DNA of 64,000 nt from Sycon ciliatum (taxonomy: Eukaryota > Porifera > Calcarea > Leucosolenida > Sycettidae). Numbering within the stretch: position 1 is the stretch's first letter; each line of letters begins with the position of its first letter. Both the position numbers and the translations under genes were made by a program. The notes beneath the pieces are model-generated. The model was not told the DNA's origin, did no database searches, and saw only the letters and a list, made by a program, of their open reading frames with translations. This document shows positions 10,701 to 54,011 of the stretch, in pieces. Location: the NCBI RefSeq assembly GCF_964019385.1, contig NC_088654.1, forward strand, positions 17,568,873 through 17,632,872. The letters are read 5' to 3'.

Positions 10701-13700
10701 TTATTATTATTATTAAGAAAGGTTTGCTCCCCACACCGGAGCTCGCGCTATTCCGCCGACTTTACTTGACACTTGACTGACTCACGACTGCCATCCAGAG
10801 CACACGAGAAGTCCATCGAACCTTCGACTCGGCAAACCTGCAAGAAAGCACCACTCCCTGCTCAATACACAGTGTTTCGGGGAATTCACCCCTCATCAGT
10901 TGAGCTTGAGTAGGCTGAGGAAGATTGTGCCTGAAGAGCACCACTTATATAGTGCTCTCCAGGCACAAACATCACCAGGGATACAAACTTACAGAGACGC
11001 TCCGCGGAATAGCGCGAGCGGAATAGCGCGAGCTCCGGTGTGGGGAGCAAACCTTTCTTACAAATCATCGCCGAAGTCGCAACCACTACTTCGTATTATT
11101 ATAATTATTAAATTTTTGATAGGGCAATCCCCACAGGCCTAAGGCCTTTTGACAGAAATTCGGCTCTAAAGTCGCAGCCATCTTTCGCAAGCAAGTAATG
11201 ATTACAGAAATTGTATTTGCATGCTATTGAGGCACTAAAACATCAATTTTCGGCGAATTCAGTGCGAAAATTGCGTATTCGGCTAAAAGATCGGTGATTT
11301 CTTCAAAACCACTATTTTCGGCCAATGTTTCGGCCGGCAGATTTGGGAAATGCCCACGGGCCGTGACGCAGGCGCACACGAGCGGTCATGGCCAGTTGCC
11401 CACGACCCTGCAAAACATGTACATTGTACTACATGTACTTTCACTTTAGCTCATGCATAATACATGTACATGTACATGTACACCCTTCAAAGCGGTGAAC
11501 CCCTTGTACTTGTGGTCTAGGAGCCAAGTCAGCAAAAGTCCAAGGAATAAGCTTATAAGGTATTGATAGGCGACAAGCCTCTGGGTCATCCTAATAAAGA
11601 TATTATTATTATTACATGTACATGTATATTCGGCGATTTCTCGGTAAAATCTCAGAATTCGGCGAAAGGATCGGCGATTTTCTGAAAAGGCTACTTTCGG
11701 CGAATTTTTCGGCCGGCCGATATGGGAAAGGCCTACTTGCCAACATTCAACGCTTGGTCGACACGTACTCTGATGATCTGCCAAGCTCTTCAACTATATC
11801 AACTGACATCCGAAAGTGGGTCAGGAAATGGAAGGACGCAGCACAGAAGTCTCGTGCACTTCCAGCTACCCCACGAGCTCTTGTGCATTGCGATGCTGAT
11901 GTTTTCCCGAACATCCACGTCCTCCTCCGGATTGCTTCAACACTACCCGTCACCTCTGCGGAGAATGAGCGCAGCAACACTGCCTTGAAATGGCTGAAGC
12001 ACTACCTGCGCTCGAGCGCTCGACAATGGGATCAGAGCGCCTATCCTCTAGCCCTTTCCCAAAGGTGCCCGCCCTTTTTTCGCCCTTTTCGGCCCTTTTT
12101 GGAAAAGCCCGTTTCTTTCGCCCTTTATAAGGGCGGAAGAAAACTGAACCCCCCTTGAAAAAATCCTGGATCCGCCCCTGGAGGCATCTCGGATCTTGGA
12201 CAGTGCAGGGCGCCTAACTGTGTACAAAGGATTTGTACGGCCTATAATGGAGTACGCTCCTCTCGTCTGGGCAAGTGCGGCACATTGTCACCTCCATCAG
12301 CTGGACCTGGTCCAGCGTCGAGCCATGAAGGTTATTGGCCCCTCATTGCTCCCCAGCCTGGCAATCCGAAGGCATGTTTACGGGCTGTGCTACCTGTATA
12401 AGCTGCAATGCATACCAGGTCCAGCTCTGCTTACCAACATGTTAACTCCCCCAGCAAGAGTTAACGCTGCACCCCGGACGCGCCGGCAACGCCAGTCCCT
12501 CGGTGGCCACTCTTTCCAACTCGCAACTCCTCTGCCGGACTCCAGTCCAGAGTTCATCCGCCGCTCCTTCCCATACTTTGTCCTGGAGAGCTGGAACACA
12601 CTGCTTGCCCCAATCCTCGCCGAACGCCCAACTCTCAAGAAATTGCCGACATTCAAGACCAAGGCCTACCATCACCTCCGCCAGACCAATTGGCTATGGG
12701 CCACTGACGTCCACCAGCACTGAGAATAACCGGTTGTCTCTATTATTATCATTTTCTGTTTCTCTCTCTCTCTCACTCTTCCTCTCCTGGGAAGCTCCTC
12801 ATGCTCATTCTCCCTTGCTCTGTCCATTTCCCCTTCCTGATGCGTAGACCAACTGTTGAACCCGAGACCACTAGGTCGGGGGAGGTTGACCTACCTCATC
12901 GGCACGCATGCCAGGCTCCTCTGTGTTGTCAATGTTCGCTTGTCCAATTTTGTCTACCTCCCCTTTTATGTTGCTGGCCAGTGCTTTGTAGTAAAAAAAG
13001 CCATTATCGATTTTTTATCAAAACTCACGATTTATCCTTTCCTTTTTGGCCTTGTGGTTATGAATGCTGTCTGCTGACCATGAAGTTGTGAGTTCAAACC
13101 CCAAACTATCTTCAAGTCAATGTTGAGTCACCTCCACCATCACACTGCGCTCTTTAGCCGACTAGACCCTCCTGCACACAACCATCACCATTGCGAGGAC
13201 ACTTCCGTAGACGATATTGATAAACTCCTTCAGACAGCTGTTCCGCTAATACATAGCTCATCAGTGAAGGTAGATGTTGAATGATTAAAAATATAGACCA
13301 AACTGCTATTATATAGGGGATTTCCACATACAAAACTGGCATGGCTGAGGTGATAACGCGGGAAAAGGAAAGTGTGAAGTACTGTTGACGCGCATTGGAC
13401 ATGCATGCAGCGTCGGAAATTCGGCGCGGAAAATCAATCACTATTCAATGCAGAAATAACGTGCCAGAATCAGAGTACTATGTAGCTAGTGAGAGTCTGT
13501 GTACTAGTATTGCAGTTGTCCGAGCGCCATGAAGGCCTGCGAACGCACCTCACGACCCGCCGACGTCGACAGCCACATCAGCCCCTGGGGCATGACACTG
13601 TACTGCTCGCCCGTCGCGCCAAGACGCTTGGCAGTCACTAGGCTTCATGCCACCGATGTTGTCCGCAAGCTACCTTGTTATCTGCCCATCACCCACTGCC

Positions 13701-16700
13701 GCTGACACGCTGCATGCATGTCCAATGCGCGTCAACAGTACTTCACACTTTCCTTTTCCCGCGTTATCACCTCAGCTATTCCAGTTTTGTATGTGGAAAT
13801 CCCCTATATAATAGCAGTTTGGTCTATATTTTTAATCATTCAACATCTACCTTCACTGATGAGCTATGTATTAGCGAAACAGCTGTCTGAAGGAGTTTAT
13901 CAATATCGTCTACGGAAGTGTCCTCGCAATGGTGATGGTTGTGTGCAGGAGGGTCTAGTCGGCTAAAGAGCGCAGTGTGATGGTGGAGGTGACTCAACAT
14001 TTTCTTCAATGGCCGAGAGCTCTGTCGCACCCTGTAATATCTTCAAGTCAAACTTTTTTTTCATTGTTTTTGGTGATGTACAAGACAAAAGGTGGCTGAG
14101 CCAAACGACTTGTTGTTGGAGCTAGCGTTTCCTGCCGAACTGACTGACACTTGACTGGCTCATGCCATGTGATTCTGAACACACCCACAGCACTGAAACA
14201 GTGTGAGTGAACACGGAAGTCATTGCGCTGTAGCTACGTGTTGTTGAATACACCAGCACATCGATCGATCGATTTCTTTTTGAGAACTATTTTAGTATTT
14301 CAAGATCGCCAATTTATTTGAATTTAGGCGTCAACGCCGTCTTCTATCAGCTTTTACAGGCGCCTGCTTTTCTCAAGATGTTGTCGAAGTCACACGGATA
14401 GCTTTGCCAAGTCATGGCCTTGGGAATGAGTCTGTGTCGATGTCGTTTTCGTCACATGGTGAGAGTAAATTGCATCGCAGCTCAAAGAAACTATTTGAGC
14501 ACAAAACGAATTGGGACCCATCCCGCTCGTCAACATTTACCACACTTTCGACGTATCCTCTCTGACTCCATATCAATACAAGGAAGAACTCGTTTGTTGT
14601 AAACCAGACGTACATGCACCGACGCGAGTGAGTTGTCATTTTTCATGCTTTCGCGCGGAATATTTCTTCGAGTTCACAGTGAGTTTTTCCAGGCAGCGCT
14701 CGAGCGCTCATACGGTAAGACGGCAAACTCCCCGGGCGATCGCCAGGATTGCAAATCTTTTTGAAACAGACTCTAGGCTGGATTTTTGCAGATAAGACCG
14801 GAAACCGTAATGTACACTATAATGTACACTCAGACGTATAACTCTGCATAAATGTACATGTAAGACTGGACCATCGAACGAGAACGAAACTGCTGTGTTC
14901 GCTAAAAATAAGAACGGGCTAGGCTAGAACCCTGACCCCCAGTTCTTCGGCGCCCAACAGTACCGCACACGTCAGGCGAAATTACTGGTCAGTCGGCGTC
15001 ACGCATTTTTCACAAAAATTTGCGTTTCACCTGCTGGGAGAGTATGCGTGTACTCGAGTCTCATCCTGAGCACGTTTTTTTCTTTCTTTTTTTAGCTCCA
15101 GTATAGCTGTATTTTTCATTGCAAAGCCCTCCTCGATTGATGTGTTCGTTGTTCAAACGAAGTGGACATTCAATCATGAAGGCAGAGGACATAGGAGCCT
15201 GATTGGAGTTTCTCGTGGCATAGGACGGCCACACAGAGACACTTTGGGATTTTCTGAATATAAAATACCGTACGCACGATGCTGAGATCAATTTGTGCGA
15301 TATCAAATTGTTTGTGATCTACCACATCGAGCAGAACGGGATCCAAACACAAGCTTACCGACGGTTAGGCTGCCGACCTGACTGGACAAATGATCCCTGG
15401 CTTCAACAGACGCCAGAAGTCGGACACCATGTCCTTTGCCGCGCCGTCCATCTCCAAAAAGAACTCCATCTTCGTCGTGAAAAGGCTTGAAATACTCAAT
15501 ATTCAACGGAGATTCGCGGTCTCACCCTTTCTCAGATCGAATCATTTTTTGTTGTAGCAGTTGCAGGGCAGATCCCTGCCACTACTTCAACAGAAGATGG
15601 CTCCAAAGCATGCCTGGAACAAGCCATATCGAGGTTGCAAGCCACCCCTCTCAGCACTTTTTTCGAAGAAATTCGAAATTTCAGTGGTGGAAGATATACT
15701 ATGAAGAGAATTTCAAAAAGTATGTTTCGCGGATCGATCGCTCAACCTACGTCATTCAAACTTTGCAGGATGGTTCAGACGTACATGCTAGGCATGGAAC
15801 CACAGAAGATGATATCATAGCTGACACACAGAGTCACACACACAGCAGATTCGTGTGCACAGATACTGAATTAGTGGACGTCGTCATCTTCTTCCCGCTG
15901 ATCTCAAATGTACTATGACGTGCTATTTCGCCTGACGGTTCTTCTATATTTGTTTACAGGTCGCCAGCCCTATGGTAGCAAAGGAGACTGTACTTTTATT
16001 GATTCCGGAAAGACTGATCGTCTGCAACGTGTGTCATGCCTCTCATAATCATGATGCCTTACGGCTGTAGATGCCTGTGATAAGTGCAGTGCTGGCAACT
16101 GAAACCCGACCCCCTTGCCGGCTCGCCGCGCCGGCAAGGGGGTCGGGTTTAAGTTGCCAGCACTGTACTTACTAGCACTCCAGCTACGGTACCGAGCAGT
16201 GTAGAAAAGCACACCGAGATGGGCCAGAAGAACAAAGTAAGGTGAATCCAGCTACAAGTACCGATGCAATGCCCATCACAGCATTCCGGCATGTACTACA
16301 AGAAGAGACGTGTCCTTTTTTATATATTTCATCCACGGCTCAACATGTTCTCCTATAAAAACGAACCATTAATACTGATTTATTTTCCCGGAAAATGCAT
16401 TATTTCATATATTAGCCCATGGGCTTATGGCTACGTTGTCGTCAGCATCGTCGTGTGTCCGTTTGTGGATTGAACTTGGCCAGGGATAGCAAAAGGGAGC
16501 GCAGAATGTTTTTACATCAGGAAGGACTGGTAAACCGTAGACATTTTTTCCGCGTACACCAAACAATCAGAAAGAAAAACACGTTTTGAAATTTAGGGTC
16601 CATGGCTTCTTTTCTTTCTTCATTTCATACTATGTTACATGTCTTTAGCTTCCAATTTCTTACGAACTTCGATGTGTGCTTTGAGATTTTCAAACTTTGG

Positions 16701-25280: not shown

Positions 25281-26246
25281 TTCGGTCAGTTTTGAGTCAG
25301 GAAAGTGGGGGGAACTACACACACTAGTACGTAGTACTGGTCTACAATACAGACATGGTACATGTAGTACTGCATCATATCAGTACAGTACATGTAGAGC
25401 CGATGGCGATGGCGATGTAGTTGTAGAGCCGATCGTATCATGACCTTGATCATTGATATTGTTGATGGCTAGCTGTGTGCTGGCGGACCAGTGGCGATGC
25501 TGCATAGCTGAGCGGGGTGACCTGGCTCAGTGACTGCACAGTCTGTCAGCCAGTGCAGTGCTGACAGTCTTGCAACTGTACCCACACTCCACAGGCCACA
25601 TTGTCATTCATGTACAACGAGTTACGTACGGTACTACCGTACTGGCAATACCGTATATTCTCTATTATAACTAATATCAAGAGTACAAGTCATGTACATG
25701 TCATAACCCCCCAGAGCCTACTAGTACTAGAGTACTAGTACTAGTAGTAGTACCCATGGCCTCGTCGGGACATCACCAACCTCGTCGGCAGCGAGCACCT
25801 TCTCACAACAGTCGTCATGGTGATGACTATGACTGTTACAGCTGACGAGCTGAGAGAAGGACGCCATGGGCAGAAGTTGGAAAAAGACAAGAAAAAAGAA
25901 AAAGAACAAAAGAACAAAAGAACAAAAGAAAAAAGAAATATAAATTACAAATAATTTAATTACAGAGGAAGACAAGAAAATAACATCACAAATCCTTCCA
26001 GACGTGATCCCTGCAGCGGCAGCAACGTGAACAATACAACGGCGGCAACACGACGACTTCTACAACACAAAAAACGAAAATTATAAAAATCCTACCAACC
26101 CGTAGAGTAACGAGGGTCCGAACCTGGGTTTTCCCAATACGGTTCAAATGGTCGCAAGACCGGGACTCTGCCAACCGGTTTATGGTTGTAGTCAGGAGCA
26201 CTACGCGTCCTCGCCTTGTAACATGCTGTCAAAATCGAAAAACATG
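25281..26246. other. Intergenic, simple-sequence-rich
   Basis: Contains (AGTACT)-type and GAACAAAA-type short tandem repeats (25720-25760, 25895-25940). No gene recognised. Confidence 0.5.
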
Positions 26247-32658: not shown

Positions 32659-32702
32659 CAGGGAGTCGTAAAATACCAGTCCTGGTATTTTACGACTCCC
32701 TG
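32659..32702. repeat. Perfect 44-bp palindrome
   Basis: 21-bp arms (CAGGGAGTCGTAAAATACCA...) with a 2-base loop. It has no counterpart in the opposite arm of the enclosing TTAA element, so it is probably a later insertion. Confidence 0.9.
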
Positions 32703-33246
32703 AGGAGGATCAAATCCATGTGCGCAGGCCAAACTGTTTTTGGGTGCGGTTCGAAGATGAGGACGTACTGATGGTGGACCAAGTGATCCAACAGCTGAAG
32801 ACGAGGTTGGCGAACTACTGTCTTGTACTGTCAGTAGGCTCCATGGCAAAGGAAGATAGAGTGTGATGGAGTGTGAGAAGATTAGTCAACATGGCGAGAT
32901 CAGCGAGAGCAGCAAAACCAGCAAAAATCAAACTGACTACATACGTGGAAATTTTTTCAAATAATCGAGAGCAGCAGAAAGCAAAAATACAAACATGAAA
33001 AATACACTTTTTTGTATTCAAATATGTACTCCCAAACATGAAAGAGCCGAAAATCCATTTTCGGAAAACCATGCACTTTCGCCACCACACTTCCGAAAGT
33101 TCGACTACTTTTTCGACTGCTGCCGCCACATTCCGAAAATAATTCCGAAATTCGGAATGCAAAACCTCTCTCTTTCTTCTGGACCCTACTCGAAAAATCG
33201 ATGCACTTCCCCTTTAATACCAAGCAAGGCTTCTGTATATACAGGT

Positions 33247-33510
33247 ATAACCCCCCCAGAGTGTGCAACGCCTGATCCAGCTCTGCATAGGGTCTTGGTC
33301 GAGCGGAATCGGATCTTTGCGTCATAATACCGTACACATCTGAGGGGAACCCGGGGAGTCGCGGGTACTCTTGGATCAAAAACAATGGTGCCCTGCCTCG
33401 AGACCGGCCTTGCGCGGGTGTGAAGTGTACGCATGACATCAGAAGATCCGATTCCGCTCGACCAAGACCCTACACAGAGCTGGATCGGCGTTGCACACTC
33501 TGGGGGGTTA
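33247..33510. mobile_element. Foldback MITE, 67-70-bp arms
   Basis: Left arm 33247-33316 and right arm 33444-33510 are inverted copies (TAACCCCCCCAGAGTG ... GAGCGGAATCGGATCT). The spacer is 127 bp. Confidence 0.85.
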
Positions 33511-33566
33511 TGTACTCTTGCTAATTAAATATAAGCACAGGTCTCCATTACTAGCACAGTCTCTTA

Positions 33567-34003
33567 GGCTGTGTTTACATGAGAAATTTCAACCCGGGTC
33601 GAGTTCAGCCCGGGTTGAAAGTCTGTACGATAGACAAAAGAGGTGAGCGTTTACATGAAGACAGTTGACCCGGGTCAAATACTGATATGCCGCCAAAAGT
33701 CCACTTCTACAGTCCTCTATGGTCACGTGAATCCGTTCGCGCGAAATTTGCATGTGCAGTGCTGTTCAAACCTGGCGCGAGATACGCACAGAAGTACGTT
33801 TGTACGATTTTCTTGACCCGGGTTGGTTTCAACCCTCCCCTTGGGGGGAGGGTTGAAATCAACCCGGGGCGAAATTTCAACCCGGGTCAAGCGCAATGCG
33901 TCATGTAAACGCGCCATTCACTTTGTGCACATGGGGGGTTGAAATCTGACCCGGGTCGAACTCAACCCGGGTTGAAACGCCTCATGTAAACACAGCCTTA
34001 GTC
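33567..34003. mobile_element. Harbinger-like MITE, copy 1
   Basis: Ends GGCTGTGTTTACATGAG and inverted partner, flanked by TTA on both sides, with long subterminal inverted AACCCGGGTTGAAA words. TTA-type 3-bp duplications and GG-starting ends point to the PIF/Harbinger superfamily. No coding capacity. Confidence 0.75.
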
Positions 34004-34011
34004 TTAGGCTG

Positions 34012-34641
34012 TGTTTACATGAGAAATTTCAACCCGGGTCGAGTTCAGCCCGGGTTGAAAGTCTGTACGATAGACAAAAGAGGTGAGCGTTTACATGAAG
34101 ACAGTTGACCCGGGTCAAATACTGATATGCCGCCAAAAGTCCACTTCTACAGTCCTGTATGGTCACGTGAATCCGTTCGCGCGAAATTTGCATCTGGAGT
34201 GCCGTTCAAACCTGGCGCGAGATACGCACAGAAGTACGTTTGTACGATTTTCTTGACCCGGGTTGGTTTCAACCCTCCCCTTGGGGGGAGGGTTGAAATC
34301 AACCCGGGGCGAAATTTCAACCCGGGTCAAGCGCAATGCGTCATGTAAACGCGCCATTCATTTTATGCACATGGCGGGTTGAAATCTGACCCGGGTCGAA
34401 CNNNNNNNNNNNNNNNNNNNNNNNNNNNNNNNNNNNNNNNNNNNNNNNNNNNNNNNNNNNNNNNNNNNNNNNNNNNNNNNNNNNNNNNNNNNNNNNNNNN
34501 NNNNNNNNNNNNNNNNNNNNNNNNNNNNNNNNNNNNNNNNNNNNNNNNNNNNNNNNNNNNNNNNNNNNNNNNNNNNNNNNNNNNNNNNNNNNNNNNNNNN
34601 NTCAACCCGGGTTGAAACGCTTCATGTAAACACAGCCTTAG
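34012..34641. mobile_element. Harbinger-like MITE, copy 2 (contains 200-N gap)
   Basis: Near-identical to copy 1 and placed immediately after it. The 200-N run (34402-34601) sits where copy 1 shows no missing base. Confidence 0.8.
34402..34601. other. Assembly gap (200 N), probably zero length
   Basis: The left flank ends '...gggtcgaac' and the right flank begins 'tcaacccggg'. In copy 1 these are directly adjacent. The palindromic CCCGGG-rich sequence probably broke the assembly. Confidence 0.95.
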
Positions 34642-37800: not shown

Positions 37801-38791
37801 CACGAGAAACAGGTTTGGGCGGAAATGCACTACCTCTTCATATGCGGCGGAGAGTACTTGCTGGGTGTCCGCTACGGAAAGGTTCCCCAATTTCAGGTCA
37901 CAGTTTGCAGGTGTGTACTGTGGGAGTTCATGGGCCCTAGTGTTAGTGTCTGGAGTGGCTCCACTGGTGTTGTTTGAGTGCCCTACATCGCTCTCATCCA
38001 GGGTGGCTAGCAACTCGGCATCCAGGGTTTGACTGGACATTACAGTGGGGTGAGCAGCCTGTGTGCTGTGTGTGGCCTCAGTCACCTCAGTGAGTAAGCG
38101 TTGGGCACGAGCTGCATTGCTCAGGAGACATGTAGGCTGCGCAGCTGCTGGGGAACACTGGGTGTGTTGTGTGTTGCATGATTGGATCTCTGTGCTCTGG
38201 GGCGTTGGTGATGGACGCTCGGGGATTGAATCGGTCTGGCTGTCCTCATTTGCTGACCCGTGCAGATGACGATCGAGCAGGTCCCATGCATGTTGTTGGG
38301 TGTTCGAAACTACGGTAGATGTACGGCTCGTAGCTTGGTCTTCCGAACGATCAAGCAGGTCCCATGCATGTTGCTGGGAGTTCGAAACTACGGTACTCGT
38401 ACTACGACTCGTTCCTGCATCTGCTGTCTGGTGGGCAGTCGCGGGGACAGGCCCAGGTGATCTGGGAACGTGACGTGCCGTTTGAACTCCTACGAGTACG
38501 GGGCTGCGAAAGGCGGGCGGTGGCGACGCCGGAGACGCGGCTGGAGAAGGATTGTTTCGGCAGCGGTTTTTCTGAGCAGGGCAGCAATTCCGGCATTTAC
38601 GTCCACTCTTCACACAGACACAGCCAACACAGGAGCCATTGCCATTGCACCGGCAACACTGAGGGCCTCCCTGCATGGCGTGTGCTGTCCAAGCTGATGC
38701 TTGAGGTGCGCAGCACGAGAATCTGGCCCAGAACTCAGTACAAATCCGACAGCTCCACAATCCGAGACCGTCGAGTTCTGCACATTTTCCC
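34813..38791 (-). mobile_element. Restriction-endonuclease-type LINE, full insertion
   Basis: Bounded by the 12-bp target duplication gtcctgtatggt (34801-34812 and 38792-38803). The uninterrupted target is visible in MITE copies 1 and 2. The 3' UTR (34813-35058) ends in a 45-base block read as ACCAGGCGTGGGCCATCCCC and following; T-rich tracts precede it and there is no poly(A). The 5' end abuts the open frame with no 5' UTR, so the copy is probably 5'-truncated. Confidence 0.9.
35059..38676 (-). CDS. LINE polyprotein: Cys-rich N-terminus, RT, restriction-like endonuclease
   Basis: Intact frame; the first ATG is at 38676, and the open frame extends upstream to the insertion boundary (38791) without a stop. 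Numbering residues from the TTG codon at 38760: a CXC-like cysteine cluster at 35-67 (CCRCNGNGSCVGCVCV); a duplicated motif TSTVVSN(S/T)QQHAWDLLDR at 121-138 and 147-164; reverse transcriptase with RPIGIGEVVRRVIGK (576-590), catalytic D in LLADASNAFNRI (637-648), EGTTQGDPLAMA (689-700) and FADD (723-726); a CCHC knuckle CVCGKAFSPEHALSC (1015-1029); and a PD-(D/E)XK-like core RLDVAASG ... LLDIRV (1083-1104) with YRKHE (1122-1126). It copies its RNA at a nicked target site. The uninterrupted frame suggests recent activity. Confidence 0.85.
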   Translation of the reverse strand: MQGGPQCCRCNGNGSCVGCVCVKSGRKCRNCCPAQKNRCRNNPSPAASPASPPPAFRSPVLVGVQTARHVPRSPGPVPATAHQTADAGTSRSTSTVVSNSQQHAWDLLDRSEDQATSRTSTVVSNTQQHAWDLLDRHLHGSANEDSQTDSIPERPSPTPQSTEIQSCNTQHTQCSPAAAQPTCLLSNAARAQRLLTEVTEATHSTQAAHPTVMSSQTLDAELLATLDESDVGHSNNTSGATPDTNTRAHELPQYTPANCDLKLGNLSVADTQQVLSAAYEEVVHFRPNLFLVPSGAVGAQFVLLLAQLFRRFGQEGAGEGYAIKGAMTATQLILQKPYGANSRQEHLDCLNRRLPLWNAGNVDELIREARTIQEQLDAGKSSTRPTPASQGNDARNFASLITAGKTGAAVRMLSQESSTGSHSLNDIIDGQSVREVLISKHPPGEPLHEAVLIPGIPPEQPHAIMFSAITREAIMKSVLNTNGAAGPSGMDANGWRRICSSFHSASDALCDALALCARRIATTAIDPSSLEAYTACRLIPLDKQPGVRPIGIGEVVRRVIGKAILMVVGPAIQQATGCLQLCAGQQSGIEAAIHAMRSAFAQDDTEAVLLADASNAFNRINRNVCIRNIQHLCPEFSTTIVNTYRSPSRLFVGGETILSCEGTTQGDPLAMAMYALGTVPLIRRAASSKAVQAWFADDSTAASTLTRLHKWWSILEEEGPSYGYYINAKKSILLVKPECLDRAREIFQDSSIDIRSDGCRHLGAVLGSRTFCSAYVSGKVDEWCREVDVLAEFARTQPQAAFAAFGQGVRHQWSFVARTVPNTADLLAPLEERIRTKFIPAIINRVPPGDIERAMLALPCRDGGLGIVNPSSLASQFQDSMHITKSLVQKILQQDQSAEGVPAATITAKAEIVSQSRRLAKEAVASVIATSTSTTERTLNLAAEKGASSWLTCRPLRQYGFNLHKQAFWDALCLRYGWTPPGLPTECVCGKAFSPEHALSCPTGGYPAMRHNDLRDLTASLLREVAHDVQVEPHLQPLTGETFRHRSAISEDGARLDVAASGVWGGRFERALLDIRVFNPHARSNRQQSITATYRKHEAEKRRAYEERVREVEHASFSPIVFSASGGYGKSASAFFKRVASMLADKRKEPFSSLLAFIRSRVSFSLVRASNASLRGHRRPRSQDARQRVIDSDASVVLAAAECFR

Positions 38792-39382
38792 GTCCTGTAT
38801 GGTCACGTGAATCTGTTCGCGCGAAATTTGCATCTGCAGTGCCGTTCAAACCTGGCGCGAGATACGCACAGAAGTACGTTTGTACGATTTTCTTGACCCG
38901 GGTTGATTTCAACCCGGGTCAAGTGCAATGCGTCATTAAATGACGCATTTTTATGCACATGGCGGGTTGAAATCTGACCCGGGTCGAACTCAACCCGGGT
39001 TGAAACGCCTCATGTAAACACCGCCTAATACTAGCACACTGTGAGCACCTTTCGAAACATCTTTCGAAACTATTATTAGCACGGTATTGGTGGAAATCAA
39101 TGCTGCATGCATGATATCTATAGTAGCATGTATTTCTTCTTGCTCTGTATGGATGTATTGGTTGAAAAAATATAAGCTCAGTCTCCAATATAAGCGCGGT
39201 CTCCAATATTAGCGCGGGGTAGAGGGGTGTTGAAAAAATATAAGCACTCGTATGTTGCCGCGTAACGCAGGGGGGTGCAGCGTAACGCGCGACCAGGCTA
39301 GTGCGACAAATTTTCGTTGACTCGGTTGAGTTCGTAACGCGCGTCCGGCGGGGTGCGGCGATCTTTTCATTGCATGCAGTTT

Positions 39383-39492: not shown

Positions 39493-39624
39493 ATAGAAAC
39501 CTGCGTAACGGCTCCTGTGCGACTTTGCATGTAAACGCCCTGCGTGCGGCAAACATGTGCCAATGTAACGCCAATGTAACGCTTCATGGCCTCACTGCGG
39601 CAACATAATAATTATTGCCAGTAC

Positions 39625-39658
39625 CAAGAGTACATAACCACTGGGTTATGTACTCTTG
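39625..39658. mobile_element. 34-bp palindrome with 7-bp TSD
   Basis: Arms CAAGAGTACATAACC / GGTTATGTACTCTTG with a 4-base loop, flanked by the direct repeat ccagtac (39618-39624 and 39659-39665). Same termini as the palindrome at 44933-44968. Confidence 0.7.
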
Positions 39659-39723
39659 CCAGTACGGTAGTAAGTATGTGGGGCCAGCAGTAGATCTACT
39701 ATGTACTCAGTCAGTGCCGGGAG

Positions 39724-39754
39724 TGGCAGAGTGCAACGAAGTTGCACTCTGCCA
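39724..39754. repeat. 31-bp perfect hairpin
   Basis: Arms TGGCAGAGTGCAAC / GTTGCACTCTGCCA, 3-base loop. No clear flanking duplication. Confidence 0.8.
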
Positions 39755-39756
39755 AG

Positions 39757-39905
39757 TACGAGAAATTTCAACCCGGGTCGAGTTCAGCCCGGGTTGAAAG
39801 TCTGTACGATAGACAAAAGATCAAAGAGGTGAGCGTTTATATGAAGACAGTTGACATGACCCGGGTCAAATACTGATATGCCGCCAGAAGTCCACTCTCC
39901 AACGT
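39757..39905. mobile_element. Harbinger-like MITE, copy 4, left fragment
   Basis: Matches the first 150 bases of copies 1-3 with small insertions, then ends. No right terminus found. Confidence 0.8.
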
Positions 39906-40009
39906 CCAATGTACAACGCTACATTTTTGAACAAACTCAGAGAGCTAGAGAGAGAGGGAGAGAGAGTCCGGAGATTCATTTATTTCACTTCCAAACAGAG
40001 TGCAAGGTT

Positions 40010-40669
40010 CGATGGACTTCTCGTGTGCTCTGGATGGCAGTCATGAGTCAGTCAAGTGAGAATATTATATTATATTTTAAAAGTCAAGTCGGCAGGAATA
40101 GCGCAAGCTCCCATGTAGAGAGGAGCACTCTGAACACACATTCCCGAAGTATCGCCGAAGTCGCACCAACCTCTTCTTCACATTGTCCCCGTCGCGGGCT
40201 TGCGAAATACAGTACGTCATGGTTTGGAGGCAACAACGTTGGGAATGGCCTGGACCTCAGCGTTTCTTCAGCCCTTCCATGAGTACCTCCATGAGCGACA
40301 CTCTCACACTGCTATCTGGTGTTCACGAGGTGTTGTCGCGCTGGAAACGGAGCGTCTCTGTAAGTTTGTAACCCTGGTGATGTTTGTGCCTGGAGAGCAC
40401 TATAAGTGGTGCTCCTCAGCCTACTCAAGCTCAACTGATGAGGGGTGATTTCCGCGAAACACTGTGTATTGAACAGGGAGTGGTGCTTTCTTGCAGGTTT
40501 GCCGAGTGGAAGGTTCGATGGACTTCTCGTGTGCTCTGGATGGCAGTCGTGAGTCAGTCAAGTGAGAATTCAAGTCGGCAGGAATAGCGCAATCTTCAAT
40601 GACTATGTAGGAAGCAACACACAATTCCCCAAGTATCGCCGAAGTCGCACCAACCTCTTCTTCGTGAAC
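40010..40669. repeat. Dispersed repeat related to 10718-11062
   Basis: Two direct blocks share 'ggttcgatggacttctcgtg' and 'ctggatggcagtc-tgagtcagtcaagtgagaat' with the 10.8-kb element. The stretch 40370-40500 matches its interior in opposite orientation. Confidence 0.7.
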
Positions 40670-40774
40670 TTAGGGACCATCGCAAAAGTTCGCAGAACTG
40701 AGCCCCCGAAACGAAGACCGTGAGTTTCGGGCCTGACCCCCCTCCCTCCCCCCTCAAACGAAACGACAGTCACA

Positions 40775-42893
40775 ATAATAGAGAGGTTCCGGGGTACGAT
40801 TTTCCGTGCCAAAATCCGTATGGGCGCTACGGATTTTTTCCAGGCGTGCTCCATACGATTTTTCGGCACGAGAATCCGTGTGGACTGGCTTTCATACGAA
40901 CCATGCTTCGTATGGAGATTTTGCGTCATCGGATCGGGTGCAGAAAGATTTTTCGCGTATTAATTTGGTACGAGAAACATCGATTTTTCGCGGGAAGTTT
41001 TGATTTCGGTACAAATTTTCAAAATAAAAAGGCATAGCGCGGGAATGTGACGTGTTTGCGATCGTAACCTAGGCAATGACGGCAAACACATAAGTTCCGT
41101 ACCCCGGAACCCGCGATATTCATGTTAAAACAAAATGGCGTCACGATTTATTGAAAGTGGTATAGTTGGTGGAACGAGTGTTCAAAACCATTTGAACTTC
41201 ATACTGTTCGTCTTCTTTTTGACATGCTCTCTTTCCATCGTCCTTAGCTTTTGTTTGTTGAGAGCTGTTTTGGCTTTCTCCTATACCTCTGGGGGATGCC
41301 AAGTGATGGTTTTGAGAGGCTGGTGATGGCTGTGAGCGAGAGTTTGCCGATCGGCGTCGTCCTCGCTATAGCGATGAAAATACTAGTTACTGCGCACCTG
41401 GCAGATATCACAACACGTCCGAGCGTCCAGGAGCAAAGGAATCTTGGGTTTTCACTGGAATCTAGTCCTCCAGGATCGTGTAGCCCACCGTCGGTGAATG
41501 GCGGTCCAGAAAGGTCGAACCTGGTCTTCTGCAGCATCTCGCAGTCCTGCGAGGCACACTGAATACGCCTGTCATGTATTCTACAAATAAAAATCACGAA
41601 GTAGTGGACTTTACAGTGATGAGTCTATCCTGTATGCTGCAAAAGACGCAGGAAATGTGACTGGTGTCTGTACACTCAGTGACTGGACGCCAACACCCCA
41701 GTCTTCTCCTGCAGGATCTGTTTGACATTGACATTATGCAGTAGGTCGGCATTGACCTGGTTTGGCAGCTATCGTAATAGTATCTGCCTGGTTGGATGTA
41801 GCAGGTTGGTGTTTGCTCGTCGTCCAGTCCGGAATTTTCTTGTAACTCACGGTGGAGTACGCGCAGGGTTTGTGATCATCCCTGTTCACTTCAATATTAT
41901 CAAACACAACGTTCCCTTTGTCACTCATCTTATCCTGAGTACTGAATTTGCTGACAATATTGCACCACCGTGACTTGTCACAACCTACCGCCACTGCTGG
42001 CGGTGGCGACTGGTTCGTCAATGGCGGTGACCAGGCTGACTGACTAGCTTCGAGACAGCGGCCTCGTTGTCAACCCCGCGGCAGCCTAAAGGTTGATTTT
42101 ATCGATCCAGCCTCAGCGCCATGTTGACGATGCCCTAGTGACTGTGTGTCATGGATTGCCTTGCCATCAGCGGTCATTGCCGTCCACCTTGATGCAGCCC
42201 TCAACAACTGGCTCAGCCCATGGGAGTCTCAAGTGGACAAAGTTGTTGCCAAAGTAGCTCAGAAGATTGGTGCATCGTGGTGTAGGTGAGCACATAACTA
42301 GGACTTCCCAGCGCCTATTTGTCCAGGCTGCGATACTATGTGACATGCTGTACTGCACATTCTTTTCAGCACTGCAAGGCTGGCAGCTGGACCGACTGCA
42401 GGGGCCGCGCACATGCAGGCCGCCTGTTGCCAGTGCAGCATTCTGGAACGTTCCTTCCTTCTGAGATCCGTGGAATAACGTTATTAACTTTCTTTGCTTC
42501 AAAGCAAGTTGCTTACCTTTCTGTTGTGCTCCCAGTGTCCTTACAACAATAACCTACAGCAATGTTTTATTTTCCTTTCCATTACCCAACCAATGAATAC
42601 TATGATGTCGATTCTATTTCTTCATGACTTTGGTGTGTGCCCGCGCACGCGCACGCACGTGTGTGTGTGTATACCTCACTCGCCACTCGAAGTTCTGTTC
42701 CCCATCACTGGAACACTGCCTGTTCTTTCAGGACCTGCCATCATCTGCAGGTGGGCATTCAATGATTGTATTGTGTGTGTGTTTCATTCAGAATCAGATC
42801 CGCTATCGTTGCTATAAGAGAAAATCTGTGGGTTCACATCCAGTGCATTTTTAGATTTGCGTGCTTTTCTCGCCACGGGCGCATACATGGGAC

Positions 42894-42930
<37 letters not shown>

Positions 42931-44810
42931 CTGTGTGTACGGGGATATTGTCTGTATCGGCTTTTGGTACTAATGTTCAGGTCTGTGCTTGCATGTGTGA
43001 ACATGAAATTGTCCGGTTCTGTGCATGCTATTGCTATGTTGTATATTATTGTATGTATGTGTGCATTTCCACGAACAGTGTAGACGAGCGTGGAGAGTGC
43101 ATTCATCCCTCATCAACCACTTCCCCTTGGGCTTACGAGAGTTTTTTCCGCGTACCTCTCATTTTTGTTTGTTTCTCTCTGATACTGTATTGATGCCGGT
43201 ACCTGTACCTCGATGTGTTCCTCTATCTGCAGTCGCCTTTAACCTTCGGTCAAGTTAACGTTTATTGTGCTCTAGTTATCGTGCGAATCAAAATGAACAA
43301 TAATAACACAAGTCGTGCTAGAGTGACGACATGTGCGTGTAGTAGGGTTGATGCGATGGGACGTTATAATTAGGTGGAACAGAACACACTTTGGGCAGAT
43401 TGATTGGGCATCATTGATTGTGCTCAGTCTAAACAGTGAACATAATAATTATCTCCAGTGACAGACTGTAGCGGCTAGCCTCCAATAGGTAGCTGGCACT
43501 AGTCGCTACTGCTTGTTTGACAGGTGCCGCCAGAACCCCTGTTGTGTCATGCTATAGATGCACATGCCCTGTTCTGGGGCATACTGAGGTACTTTGATTT
43601 TGTTGACTGCATGTAGACAGCATCCAATAGTAGTACTCGTAGACCTTGGCTCTTGGTAGGTCAACCACCATCGCATGGATCGATCGGTGACTATGCACTT
43701 GGAGGTTGGAATAGCCCGCGTTGAACAGATCTTGCCATGGCCCAGGGAGTGAACTCGCTTACTCGACTATCCCGGTTTTAGTTAACCAGCATAAGTGGTG
43801 CAATTTGTCCATACCATGTTGCGAGCTCACAGTTGTTTGGGCAGGTTTTGAGCTGCACCACGAAACAAAGCGAAATAACGGCGTGACTGTAGAGCAAGGA
43901 AGCGGCGAGACGGCACTTCCAGGACGAGACAGGCAGTAGAGATGTGTTCACAGCACGAGCAACCTCTCAAACCCTGCCGGTACTCCACAGTTACAAGAAA
44001 ATGTCGGACTGGACGACGCGCCAATGCAAACCTGCTACATCCAACCAGGCAGATAGCTGCCAAACCAGGCCAATGTCGATCCACTGCATACCGGTATGTC
44101 AATGTCAAACAGATCCTGCAGGAGAAGACTGGGATGATATTGGCGTCCAGTGTACGGACACCAGTCACATTTCCTGCGTCTTTTGCAGCATACAGGATAG
44201 ACTCATCACTGTAAAGTCCACTACTTCGTGATTTTTATTTGTAGAATACATGACAGGCGTATTCAGTTTGCCTCGCAGGACTGCGAGATGCTGCAGAAGA
44301 CCAGGTTCGACCTTTCTGGACCGCCATTCACCGACGGTGGGCTACACGATCCTGGAGGAACTAGATTCCAGTGAAAACCCAAGATTCCTTTGCTCCTGGA
44401 CGCTCGGACGTGTTGTGATATCTGCCAGGTGCGCAGTAACTAGTATTTTCATGGCTATAGCGAGGACGACGCCGATCGGCAAACTCTCGCTCACAGCCAT
44501 CACCAGCCTCTCAAAACCATCACTTGGCATCCCCCAGAGGTATAGGAGAAAGCCAAAACAGCTCTCAACAAACAAAAGCTAAGGACGATGGAAAGAGAGC
44601 ATGTCAAAAAGAAGACGAACAGTATGAAGTTCAAATGGTTTTGAACACTCGTTCCACCAACTATACCACTTTCAATAAATCGTGACGCCATTTTGTTTTA
44701 ACACGCATACGGTCCACTTTTCACTGCTCGAAAACGACGTATAAAAAATCCGTAGAGCCTCCACGGATTTTGGCACGAAAAATCGTACTCCGGAACCTCC
44801 CTAATTATGG
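40775..44810. mobile_element. 4-kb foldback with arms of about 1 kb
   Basis: Terminal GAGGTTCCGGGGTACGATTT-type inverted ends. The arms continue with 41128-41900 against 43950-44700, including 'caaaatggcgtcacgattta' and 'ggatgtagcaggttggtgtttgc' blocks in opposite orientation. The unique centre, about 41900-43950, contains GT tracts. Frames in the two arms encode the same unidentified peptide of about 110 residues (KLSLTAITSLSKPSLGIPQR). Confidence 0.7.
42895..42930. repeat. (GT)n microsatellite
   Basis: Short (GT)n in the centre of the 4-kb foldback. Confidence 0.9.
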
Positions 44811-44932
44811 GCTTCATTATTTCACTTGGATGCTGCACACATAATAATTATTATAATATACTACACAGCAGGGCCGGCCCTGGGGGTTCATAAACCCTAT
44901 GAACCCCTGCTAGTACTACATTGTAGTACTAG

Positions 44933-44968
44933 CAAGAGTCCATAAACCACGCGTTTTATGGACTCTTG
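44933..44968. mobile_element. 36-bp palindrome with 7-bp TSD
   Basis: Arms CAAGAGTCCATAAA / TTTATGGACTCTTG, 8-base loop, flanked by the perfect direct repeat gtactag (44926-44932 and 44969-44975). Another small palindrome (GCTAGTACTACA / TGTAGTACTAGC) lies directly to the left. Confidence 0.7.
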
Positions 44969-45224
44969 GTACTAGACTACACACAGTGTACCGGCAGCCA
45001 GCTACGCGACACGCGCAGTTGCATGAATGGACTACGCGTCCTGACAAGCGATCTACGCCGGCTGTGATGGCATGCTAATCTATAATCAGCTCCTATACAT
45101 GTCGTCAATACTTTTTTGAATTGAAGCCCGGTTTGCGATTTTCGACACGACTCCCTCCCCCCCCCCCCCCCCAAACGTATGCTCTTCGTTTCAGGGGCTT
45201 CTGCGAACTTTTGCGATGGTCCCT

Positions 45225-45839: not shown

Positions 45840-46190
45840 GTGACAGTCTTTGATAATGCTCGAAACATTAGCAGATTCTGCTCGAAGAACAGGGAAATTA
45901 GCCCCAACCATACACACCTTATGGCAGGCACTTCCTTGAATTCTGCTCCATTTCTTTTTTCACATACCAAACATGCATGAAACATCAGGCGCGTGCCCCG
46001 TATGGGTTCCTGGGTGCCCGGAACCCCCCTTTTTTCGCTCAAAATGCAGGATTTTGCTTCATTTTTTGAAAGATTTCCCGGAGGAGGTCCCCCGGAAACC
46101 CCCCTTGAAGGGCACCGGCGCACGCGCCTGAACATACCAGAAAAAGTAGAAAATTCTGCAAAATTGTCTGCCGGCAGTATCCGCTGAGGG
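45840..46190. repeat. Dispersed repeat split by a hAT5-like MITE
   Basis: Paralogous to 51965-52140 (inverted orientation). The paralog lacks the 145-bp insertion. Confidence 0.75.
45986..46130. mobile_element. 145-bp hAT5-like MITE with 5-bp TSD
   Basis: Ends CAGGCGCGTGCC / GGCGCACGCGCCTG, flanked by aacat (45981-45985 and 46131-46135). Terminal bases match the 16799-18346 element. The empty site is visible at about 52010-52030. Confidence 0.85.
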
Positions 46191-52883: not shown

Positions 52884-52924
52884 CAAGGAGTCGTGAACAA
52901 ATACCGGTATTTCACGACTCCTTG
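52884..52924. repeat. 41-bp palindrome
   Basis: Arms CAAGGAGTCGTGAA / TTCACGACTCCTTG around ATACCGGTAT. Ends resemble the 34-44-bp palindromes at 32659, 39625 and 44933. Confidence 0.8.
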
Positions 52925-53001
52925 CTTTCCACGCCATCTTGGAGCAGACCTCTTTCCGTTCGTGACACACGTCTACAGATACAATGTACATGTACAATGT
53001 A

Positions 53002-53122
53002 CAGTGCTGGCAACTGAAATCCGACCCCCTGAGCGGTGCGCTCACATCGTAACACTACGAAATTGAGGCCGCTAGAAAGTGAACGCACCGCCCAGGGTGT
53101 CGGATTTCAGTTGCCAGCACTG
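53002..53122. mobile_element. CAGTGCTGGCAACT mini-element, copy A
   Basis: TIR CAGTGCTGGCAACTGAAATC and inverted partner, flanked by TA on both sides. 121 bp; Tc1/mariner-type MITE. Confidence 0.85.
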
Positions 53123-53171
53123 TACATGTACAGTACATGTAAGTAGCACAATGTAGACTCATATTGTTCTA

Positions 53172-53311
53172 CAGTGCTGGCAACTAAAATCCGACACCTG
53201 CACGGTGCGCTCACATGGCAAAGGTCCAACAGAGGATAGTAAAGCTACGAAATAGAGACCGCTAGAATGTGAATGCACCGCTCAGGGGTCGGATTTCAGT
53301 TGCCAGCACTG
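53172..53311. mobile_element. CAGTGCTGGCAACT mini-element, copy B
   Basis: Same TIRs, TA-flanked, 140 bp; only 49 bases from copy A. Confidence 0.85.
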
Positions 53312-54011
53312 TACAGTGCTACGAACGGATTATTAATTTTTTTCGTGGAGTTCCCCGCCCCGTGTGAAGTAGGACGGCAAATGTTTTCGCGGACTCCTCC
53401 ACTATTAAAGCAGGTTATGCCCCGTTCAGGTACATTACAACGCATAGAATAGCTCCGTGTTCTCTTCATGCTCTATACTGACGCTCTCACTGCATAGTAG
53501 TAGTAGTGTGCTGAAGAGTGCAGTCGCCACCAAGTCACCTCCTTCACGACACGTGGGATAACCGATTGCATCTTTCTGCTGTAACATTGCTGTGTGTGTG
53601 ATATTCTACTCCTTCTCGCATCATTCCCACTGGTGTTGCCCATGGGAAACCAGCACAGCTACATGTAGATACCGTAATAATAGTTTTAAAATATTATCGT
53701 AGTAGATGAGTCTAAGTGATTACTACCGTCGCATGCAGCCCACAAGACCAAACACCTTATTGAACTTCTTTCTCACGGTCGCTTCCGTGTACAATAGGGC
53801 TGCCTGTAGCCCGAGTGCACTTGCAAGTTAATAAAGAATACATACCTGTACATACAGAACATGTCTTGGGTCCTTGCTGCAAATACGCAGAGCAGAAAAA
53901 CAGAGACCAATATCGTTATTGGCTTCTGTTTTTCTGCTTTGTGTACATGTACCTGTACTGCAGACAGGCACAGTGGGTTGGTCAAAGACCATGATTGAGA
54001 TACGAGAGGTA
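53312..54011. other. Unassigned, one 46-bp hairpin
   Basis: A GCAGAAAAACAGA... imperfect palindrome at about 53891-53938. Nothing else recognised. Confidence 0.5.

What the first reader, a model, noticed from the sequence alone, without database searches (positions are those of the whole stretch)
39618..44975. Very short palindromes (34-36 bp) with perfect 7-bp direct repeats
39625-39658 and 44933-44968 share termini CAAGAGTNCATAA, have 14-15-bp arms and tiny loops, and each is flanked by a perfect 7-bp repeat (ccagtac, gtactag). Similar-ended palindromes occur at 32659 (21-bp arms, 2-base loop) and 52884. They are too small for a normal MITE. They may be minimal transposon relics, excision/re-insertion hairpins, or a distinct class of mobile hairpin.
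Basis: partly seen in the sequence, partly recalled or inferred. Interest (0 to 1): 0.7.

Follow-up and report, generated by a model that had tools for sequence, protein, structure and literature searches.

The report
Hairpin scars left by departed transposons
Two 34-36-base DNA hairpins, each framed by a repeated 7-base word, look like the healed scars left where a P-element-like jumping gene cut itself out of an unidentified animal-like genome.

Summary
Hairpins 39625-39658 (34 bp) and 44933-44968 (36 bp) share ends CAAGAGTNCATAA, and each is abutted by an exact 7-bp direct repeat (CCAGTAC; GTACTAG). Of 23 short hairpins with exact 12-nt arms, 2 are so flanked; offset flanks agree in 90 of 46000 draws. 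The two repeats are nearly one word in opposite orientation, GTACTRG. The hairpin end is also the end of longer DNA: a ~296-bp foldback element (right end 33520) and a solo end at 25678. So these are terminal-inverted-repeat (TIR) remnants, not a separate kind of element. Best explanation: excision scars of a P-superfamily transposon. P transposase cuts 17 nt inside its TIR, so end joining leaves duplication-stub-filler-stub-duplication. Against the independent TIR copy, hairpin 1 is 15 nt + ACT + 16 nt. Published Drosophila P junctions have the same anatomy; the 33 of 66 isolates keeping both stubs of at least 12 nt span 25-44 bp. Seven-bp duplications are known from 1360 and Galileo, both P superfamily. 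The rest of the genome could not be searched; no P transposase was found in 118 scanned window ORFs.

The parts
39618..39624 (.). left 7-bp direct repeat CCAGTAC (target-site duplication; rc GTACTGG)
39625..39658 (.). hairpin 1, 34 bp: TIR stub 15 nt + ACT + TIR stub 16 nt
39659..39665 (.). right 7-bp direct repeat CCAGTAC
44926..44932 (.). left 7-bp direct repeat GTACTAG, at the edge of a 23-bp palindrome 44910-44932
44933..44968 (.). hairpin 2, 36 bp: two mutually inverted stubs of 14 nt, 8 nt between
44969..44975 (.). right 7-bp direct repeat GTACTAG
33221..33520 (-). longer foldback relative (~296-300 bp): intact right end CAAGAGTACATAACCCCCCAGAGTGTGCAACG (rc from 33520), left end interrupted between CAAG (33221 or 33225) and TATAACC (33246); no duplication recognised
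25678..25716 (+). solo end of the same family, CAAGAGTA + 16 nt + CATAACCCCCCAGAG
44880..44909 (.). possible older third scar, CTGGGGGTTCATAAACCCTATGAACCCCTG, next to CTAGTAC; no clear duplication
32659..32702 (.). family B hairpin 1, 44 bp, flanked by AGCAGGAT / AGGAGGAT (7 of 8); not assigned to the P-type scars
52884..52924 (.). family B hairpin 2, 41 bp, TTTCCAC on both sides but 5 extra bases on the left and 1 on the right; not assigned

Best explanation
The two hairpins are excision scars of a P-superfamily cut-and-paste transposon that makes 7-bp target duplications at GTACTRG-like sites. Steps: (1) a transposon ending in CAAGAGTNCATAA... inserted and duplicated 7 bp; (2) its transposase cut at the 3' transposon ends and, on the other strand, 17 nt inside each TIR, so each flank kept its 7-bp copy plus a single-stranded TIR stub of up to 17 nt; (3) end joining fused the two stubs with slight trimming and a few filler nucleotides. 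Because the stubs are inverted copies, the product is a hairpin of about 2 x 17 bp with a tiny loop, framed by the duplication. Shown here: the structure, the match of hairpin 1's stubs to an independent TIR copy, and the flanks. Inferred: the superfamily, the 17-nt stagger in this family, and the order of events.
For: Exact 7-bp repeats abut both hairpins (2 of 24, control 0 of 520; 2 of 23, control 90 of 46000), and they are nearly the same word in opposite orientation (GTACTAG, GTACTGG). The hairpin end recurs on longer DNA: 15 and 16 nt of hairpin 1's two arms match the 33520 end exactly, leaving 3 nt between; CATAACCCCCCAGAG recurs exactly at 25702 and 33498. P transposase leaves 17-nt 3' tails (PMC2895639, section 7 read; PMC5466332 and PMC7776569, passages), and the junctions in Table 1 of PMC2895639 are duplication-stub-filler-stub-duplication: 33 of 66 isolates keep both stubs of at least 12 nt and span 25-44 bp, 27 of the 33 within 30-38 bp, 5 within 34-36 (rows typed). 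Ours are 34 and 36. TSD length 7 is the mode for 1360 (PMC3276498, passages) and usual for Galileo, consensus GTANTAC (PMC4168063, PMC2775673, passages). GTACTAG scores 6 of 7 and GTACTGG 5 of 7 against GTANTAC (0.45% and 3.5% of window 7-mers do as well). All 4 flanking 7-mers of family-A ends score at least 3 of 4 on NTANTAN, against 4.6% of window 7-mers; the motif was chosen after seeing the flanks, and two of the four are one-sided flanks without a duplication.
Against: No P transposase domain was found in the 118 window ORFs scanned. For hairpin 2 no independent copy of its exact end exists (it differs from the 33520 end at position 8, so exact stub matching stops at 7 nt); its stub length rests on symmetry alone. 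Similarity to the Drosophila P end is weak: 10 of 17 for hairpin 1's family (2.2% of CA-starting window 17-mers do as well; 10 of the first 14, 0.36%, a length picked afterwards), 9 of 17 for hairpin 2. The targets fit 1360's motifs poorly: GTTNAAC 4 and 3 of 7 (17% and 48% of window 7-mers do as well); KTNBWAB 7 and 6 of 7 (1.8% and 16%). GTACTRG is over-represented in this window (36 against 11.7 expected), so the shared word is less surprising than it looks. A broad control showed no excess of abutting 7-bp repeats (2 against 4.7 per run). Neither longer copy has a recognisable 7-bp duplication. The 17-nt stagger reported in the papers seen is for Drosophila P, not for 7-bp members. Half of the published isolates (33 of 66) do not keep both stubs. 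Only two cases.
Confidence: 0.6

Rival explanations
1. Internal-deletion relics made in place: a longer foldback element lost its middle by aborted gap repair, replication slippage or nicking of an extruded hairpin, which shortens palindromes from the centre until they are too short to extrude.
For: A longer foldback relative exists at 33221-33520; the window is rich in palindromes (24 against 0-2 per resample); centre-directed processing of palindromes is known (recalled; one search was a search listing only).
Against: Deletion endpoints would be expected at any distance; both stubs of hairpin 1 end at 15 and 16 nt and hairpin 2's exact symmetry also ends at 14 nt, just inside the 17-nt limit.
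Confidence: 0.22
2. Micro-MITEs: 34-36-bp elements that insert as such by a transposase recognising the short ends.
For: Exact duplications and shared ends; both hairpins read AACCAC across the centre in the same orientation.
Against: Centres differ in length and sequence, and part of the shared letters lies in hairpin 1's arm. P transposase binds 10-bp internal sites beyond the 31-bp TIR, and the internally deleted P elements described are 0.5-2.8 kb (PMC7776569, passages). The two hairpins are not copies of each other in the middle; only this window could be examined.
Confidence: 0.1
3. Remnants of another superfamily with 7-bp or variable duplications (Mutator-like, Dada, an unusual hAT).
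For: Foldback form is typical of Mutator/Foldback elements (recalled); an ORF at 11598-12155 has a weak hAT dimerisation match (E 0.00041, 20.5 bits, under the 21.4 cut-off), so hAT relics may exist here; family B ends CARGGAGTCG look hAT-like (recalled).
Against: hAT excision leaves no TIR stubs (recalled), and the modal duplication of the hAT element hobo is 8. The GTACTRG target resembles Galileo's GTANTAC.
Confidence: 0.07
4. Chance, or repair-templated palindromes unrelated to transposons.
For: Palindromes and GTACTRG words are common in this window; the broad control shows no excess.
Against: Controls matched to short hairpins: 0 of 520 and 90 of 46000 for an exact abutting 7-mer; the CAAGAGTAC or CAAGAGTCC end recurs at four places.
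Confidence: 0.01

Closest known systems
Drosophila P-element excision footprints (end-joined junctions, PMC2895639 Table 1)
   Same: Direct duplication, TIR stub of at most 17 nt, microhomology or filler (0-14 nt where both stubs are at least 12 nt), inverted stub, duplication; 25-44 bp when both such stubs survive
   Different: There 8-bp duplication and freshly made in a laboratory assay in flies lacking Rad51; here 7 bp, natural, different TIR sequence, unidentified host
Galileo and 1360 (P superfamily)
   Same: 7-bp duplications; Galileo target GTANTAC close to GTACTAG; Galileo has long foldback-like TIRs, as the 33221-33520 relative has
   Different: No transposase seen here; ends not compared with Galileo or 1360 ends, which no call returned; 1360's own motif GTTNAAC fits poorly
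Foldback or palindromic MITEs
   Same: The ~296-bp relative is a TIR-TIR element of this form
   Different: The hairpins lack all subterminal sequence and are shorter than any MITE known to me (recalled)

Membership tests
P-superfamily excision footprint | Target duplication of 7 or 8 bp directly flanking the stubs | tested here: met
   Exact 7 bp at both hairpins
P-superfamily excision footprint | Each stub matches the element's TIR for no more than 17 nt | tested here: met
   Hairpin 1: 15 and 16 nt against the independent 33520 end. Hairpin 2: no independent copy of its variant end, so not decided there
P-superfamily excision footprint | Total span in the range of known junctions (25-44 bp with both stubs of at least 12 nt) | tested here: met
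   34 and 36 bp
P superfamily (element) | Encodes THAP/P transposase between the ends | tested here: inconclusive
   None among 118 window ORFs scanned with Pfam; expected absent from scars; genome not searchable
P superfamily (element) | Palindromic target motif of the kind reported for Galileo or 1360 | tested here: inconclusive
   GTANTAC: 6 and 5 of 7; KTNBWAB: 7 and 6 of 7; GTTNAAC: 4 and 3 of 7; only two sites
P superfamily (element) | Terminal sequence similar to Drosophila P | tested here: inconclusive
   10 of 17 and 9 of 17 identical; 2.2% of CA-starting window 17-mers reach 10
hAT | 8-bp duplication abutting the ends | tested here: not met
   The two family-A hairpins have exactly 7 abutting bases in common, not 8
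hAT | Excision without TIR stubs | not testable with these tools
   Feature recalled; no excision event can be watched here
Mobile micro-MITE | Several copies with the same internal sequence at different sites | tested here: not met
   The two hairpins differ in the centre; only this window could be examined

The most novel reading that the evidence does not exclude
The hairpins are themselves mobile: a 34-36-bp palindromic element, perhaps moving as a folded single strand, inserted by a transposase that makes 7-bp duplications at GTACTRG. It would be among the smallest eukaryotic elements that move as such.
Probability: 0.08. Interest if true: 0.8.

Novelty: new member of a known kind. Interest (0 to 1): 0.45.

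Why it matters
If right, a 30-45-bp palindrome framed by a 7- or 8-bp duplication is a readable fossil of one kind of cut: a transposase with a long stagger. Counting such scars would measure past excision of P-type elements in any genome, would give the stagger length of uncharacterised members from stub lengths alone, and would record how the breaks were healed. To my knowledge (recalled) repeat annotation ignores such short palindromes.

Tried and rejected
Empty sites: self-comparison of the window for a copy of either locus without the hairpin found none; the 32658 hairpin lies 16 bp beyond the end of a 79% inverted 1-kb repeat, but the partner copy diverges before it. More family members: single-end searches with up to 3 mismatches are at chance level for CAAGAGTNCATAA (57 against 60.8 expected), although 5 of the 57 are exact; CARGGAGTCGTRAA exceeds chance (30 against 14.2), but only the two hairpins' four arms match exactly. 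Scans elsewhere: viral contigs 0; genome contigs 1 bacterial hit, a 45-bp palindrome (L001), taken as coincidence without a test. RNA gene: Rfam 0 matches at gathering thresholds. Direct repeats near palindromes in general: 18 of 69 palindromes have a 7-bp or longer repeat within 8 bases of the arms against 2.0 in the control, but by my reading at least 11 of the 18 arise from nested, tandem or simple palindromic repeats, so offset repeats (family B) were given little weight. Literature: searches (5 papers listed; 0; 7; 15 of 49 listed; 15 of 28 listed) showed no paper whose title or opening abstract describes natural palindromic P scars; full texts were not searched for it beyond those terms, and the rows listed are about arachnid mites or other unrelated matters. 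The library holds open-licence papers only.

Dropped before counts: ORF scan, 479 frames of at least 60 aa passed a composition filter, the 150 longest were listed, and 118 of the 150 were submitted; 32 were left out by hand, mostly as overlapping or repetitive. Published junctions: 3 of 66 isolates (deletions past the duplication) were counted in the total only. My first count gave 32 isolates with both stubs because its filter also dropped the one blunt join (25 bp); one search corrects this to 33.
Full report
Setting. The window contains 400 N, 200 of them at 8501-8700, reverse-transcriptase ORFs, CA-type simple repeats (seen in the ORFs) and many palindromes. It reads as animal nuclear DNA, but no call identified the organism. 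The rest of the genome could not be searched (13 unanswered calls, listed in Tried and rejected).

Observation. Both hairpins exist as described. Hairpin 1 (39625-39658, 34 bp) has 15-bp exact arms and a 4-nt loop between two copies of CCAGTAC. Hairpin 2 (44933-44968, 36 bp) has 14-bp exact arms between two copies of GTACTAG. The reverse complement of CCAGTAC is GTACTGG, so the two duplications differ at one base. Of 24 hairpins with exact arms of at least 10 and loops up to 16, 2 have an exact 7-bp repeat abutting the arms; mismatched flank pairs gave 0 of 520. With exact 12-nt arms and length 26-60 it is 2 of 23, against 90 of 46000 offset draws. A broader test is less clean: among 5622 inverted-end pairs up to 1.5 kb only these two have an abutting repeat of exactly 7, but offset flanks of the same pairs gave 4.7 per run, I think because simple and tandem repeats dominate that set. 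Folded as single DNA strands with their flanks, both do far better than shuffles (z -7.5 and -7.2), which a palindrome must do and which is no evidence of function. For hairpin 1 the direct repeat can be read as TTGCCAGTAC, 10 bp, because TTG at the arm end also precedes the left copy; a scan of maximal repeats therefore recovers hairpin 2 only, as the one of 167 maximal 7-bp repeats at gaps of 24-60 with inverted inner ends. Hairpin 2, with the same ends, argues for 7.

Not a hairpin family of its own. The end CAAGAGTACATAACC occurs in full at a third place: the right end of a foldback element ending at 33520, whose arms are nearly identical over about 70 bp and whose left tip is interrupted. 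A fourth place, 25678, has CAAGAGTA, 16 inserted nt, then CATAACCCCCCAGAG, which matches the 33520 end exactly over 15 nt. So the hairpin arms are the outermost bases of a transposon-like TIR.

Why a scar. Most cut-and-paste transposons leave few or no TIR bases behind (recalled). P transposase is unusual: it cuts one strand 17 nt inside the TIR (PMC7776569, passages), leaving 17-nt non-complementary 3' tails on the donor flanks (PMC2895639, PMC5466332, passages). Table 1 of PMC2895639 (section 7 read) lists the repaired junctions from flies lacking Rad51: duplication, stub, microhomology or filler, inverted stub, duplication. Of 66 isolates, 33 keep both stubs of at least 12 nt; these span 25-44 bp, 27 of them 30-38 bp and 5 of them 34-36; the other 33 have at least one shorter stub or none. 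Hairpin 1 decomposes against the independent 33520 end into 15 nt, ACT, 16 nt, inside the 17-nt limit on both sides. Hairpin 2 is symmetric for 14 nt on each side with 8 nt between; its end differs from the 33520 copy at position 8, so its stubs cannot be measured independently (exact match 7 nt).

Why the P superfamily. Seven-bp duplications are the mode for 1360 (274 of 279 insertions as printed, PMC3276498, passages) and the rule for Galileo, whose target consensus is given as GTANTAC, GTAGTAC or GTATTAC (PMC4168063, PMC2775673, passages). GTACTAG matches GTANTAC at 6 of 7 and GTACTGG at 5 of 7; 0.45% and 3.5% of window 7-mers do as well. Against 1360's motifs the fit is poor to middling: GTTNAAC 4 and 3 of 7 (17% and 48% do as well), KTNBWAB 7 and 6 of 7 (1.8% and 16%). 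The flanking 7-mers of the four family-A ends (GTACTAG, GTACTGG, CTAATAT, TAATTAG) all score at least 3 of 4 on the inner TA-TA positions, against 4.6% of window 7-mers; this test was framed after seeing the flanks, and the last two are one-sided flanks. Hairpin 2's target lies at the edge of a 23-bp palindrome (44910-44932), in keeping with the palindromic targets reported for this superfamily. Similarity to the Drosophila P end is only 10 of 17 and 9 of 17, and GTACTRG is about three times commoner here than expected (36 against 11.7); both weaken the assignment. No P transposase was seen in 118 scanned ORFs, as expected if only scars and short relatives are present.

The other palindromes. 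32659-32702 and 52884-52924 share CARGGAGTCGTRAA..ATACC with each other. Their arms extend to 19-22 nt (one with a 3-nt interruption), beyond a 17-nt stub; the flanks of the first agree at 7 of 8 positions, and the second has TTTCCAC on both sides with CAAGG intervening on the left and one base on the right. They could be scars of a family with a longer stagger, internal-deletion relics, or remnants of a hAT-like element; I leave them unassigned. A third palindrome, 44880-44909, sits next to CTAGTAC and resembles the family-A end, but lacks a clear duplication.

Verdict. Confidence is about 0.9 that the hairpins are TIR-TIR remnants of a transposon (the sum of the scar, internal-deletion and other-superfamily readings), and 0.6 that they are P-type excision scars specifically. 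Internal deletion in place keeps 0.22, and a mobile micro-element about 0.1. The kind of structure is known from Drosophila experiments; what may be new is recognising it as a natural palindromic scar in another, animal-like genome, which my searches (open-licence papers, titles and opening abstracts of the rows listed) did not show described.

Noticed in passing
45986-46130: 145-bp stretch with inverted ends CAGGCGCGTGC... and a 5-bp direct repeat AACAT: perhaps another small non-autonomous transposon, of a different superfamily.
   Followed up: partly
11598-12155 (+): ORF with a weak hAT dimerisation-domain match (E 0.00041, below Pfam's cut-off).
   Followed up: partly
16081-16171, 52997-53127, 53170-53313: Related palindromic elements with ends like CAGTGCTGGCAACTGAAA; one is an almost loop-free 91-bp palindrome.
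   Followed up: no
33826-33873, 34266-34313 against 38785-39026: A 48-bp hairpin extension present in two copies of a repeat and absent from a third, so palindromes grow or shrink within one repeat family.
   Followed up: no
25686-25701 and 33225-33245: Two family-A ends are each interrupted within the first 17 nt by roughly 16-21 nt containing a small palindrome (ACATGTACATGT; CTGTATATACAG); possibly filler from repair of one-sided cuts.
   Followed up: no
44866-44910: Palindromes CAGGGCCGGCCCTG and GGGGTTCATAAACCCTATGAACCCC beside the hairpin 2 target, with a TGTAGTA word (rc) on both outer sides (read): perhaps an older scar at the same target.
   Followed up: partly
whole window: GTACTRG occurs 36 times against 11.7 expected from shuffles.
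   Followed up: no
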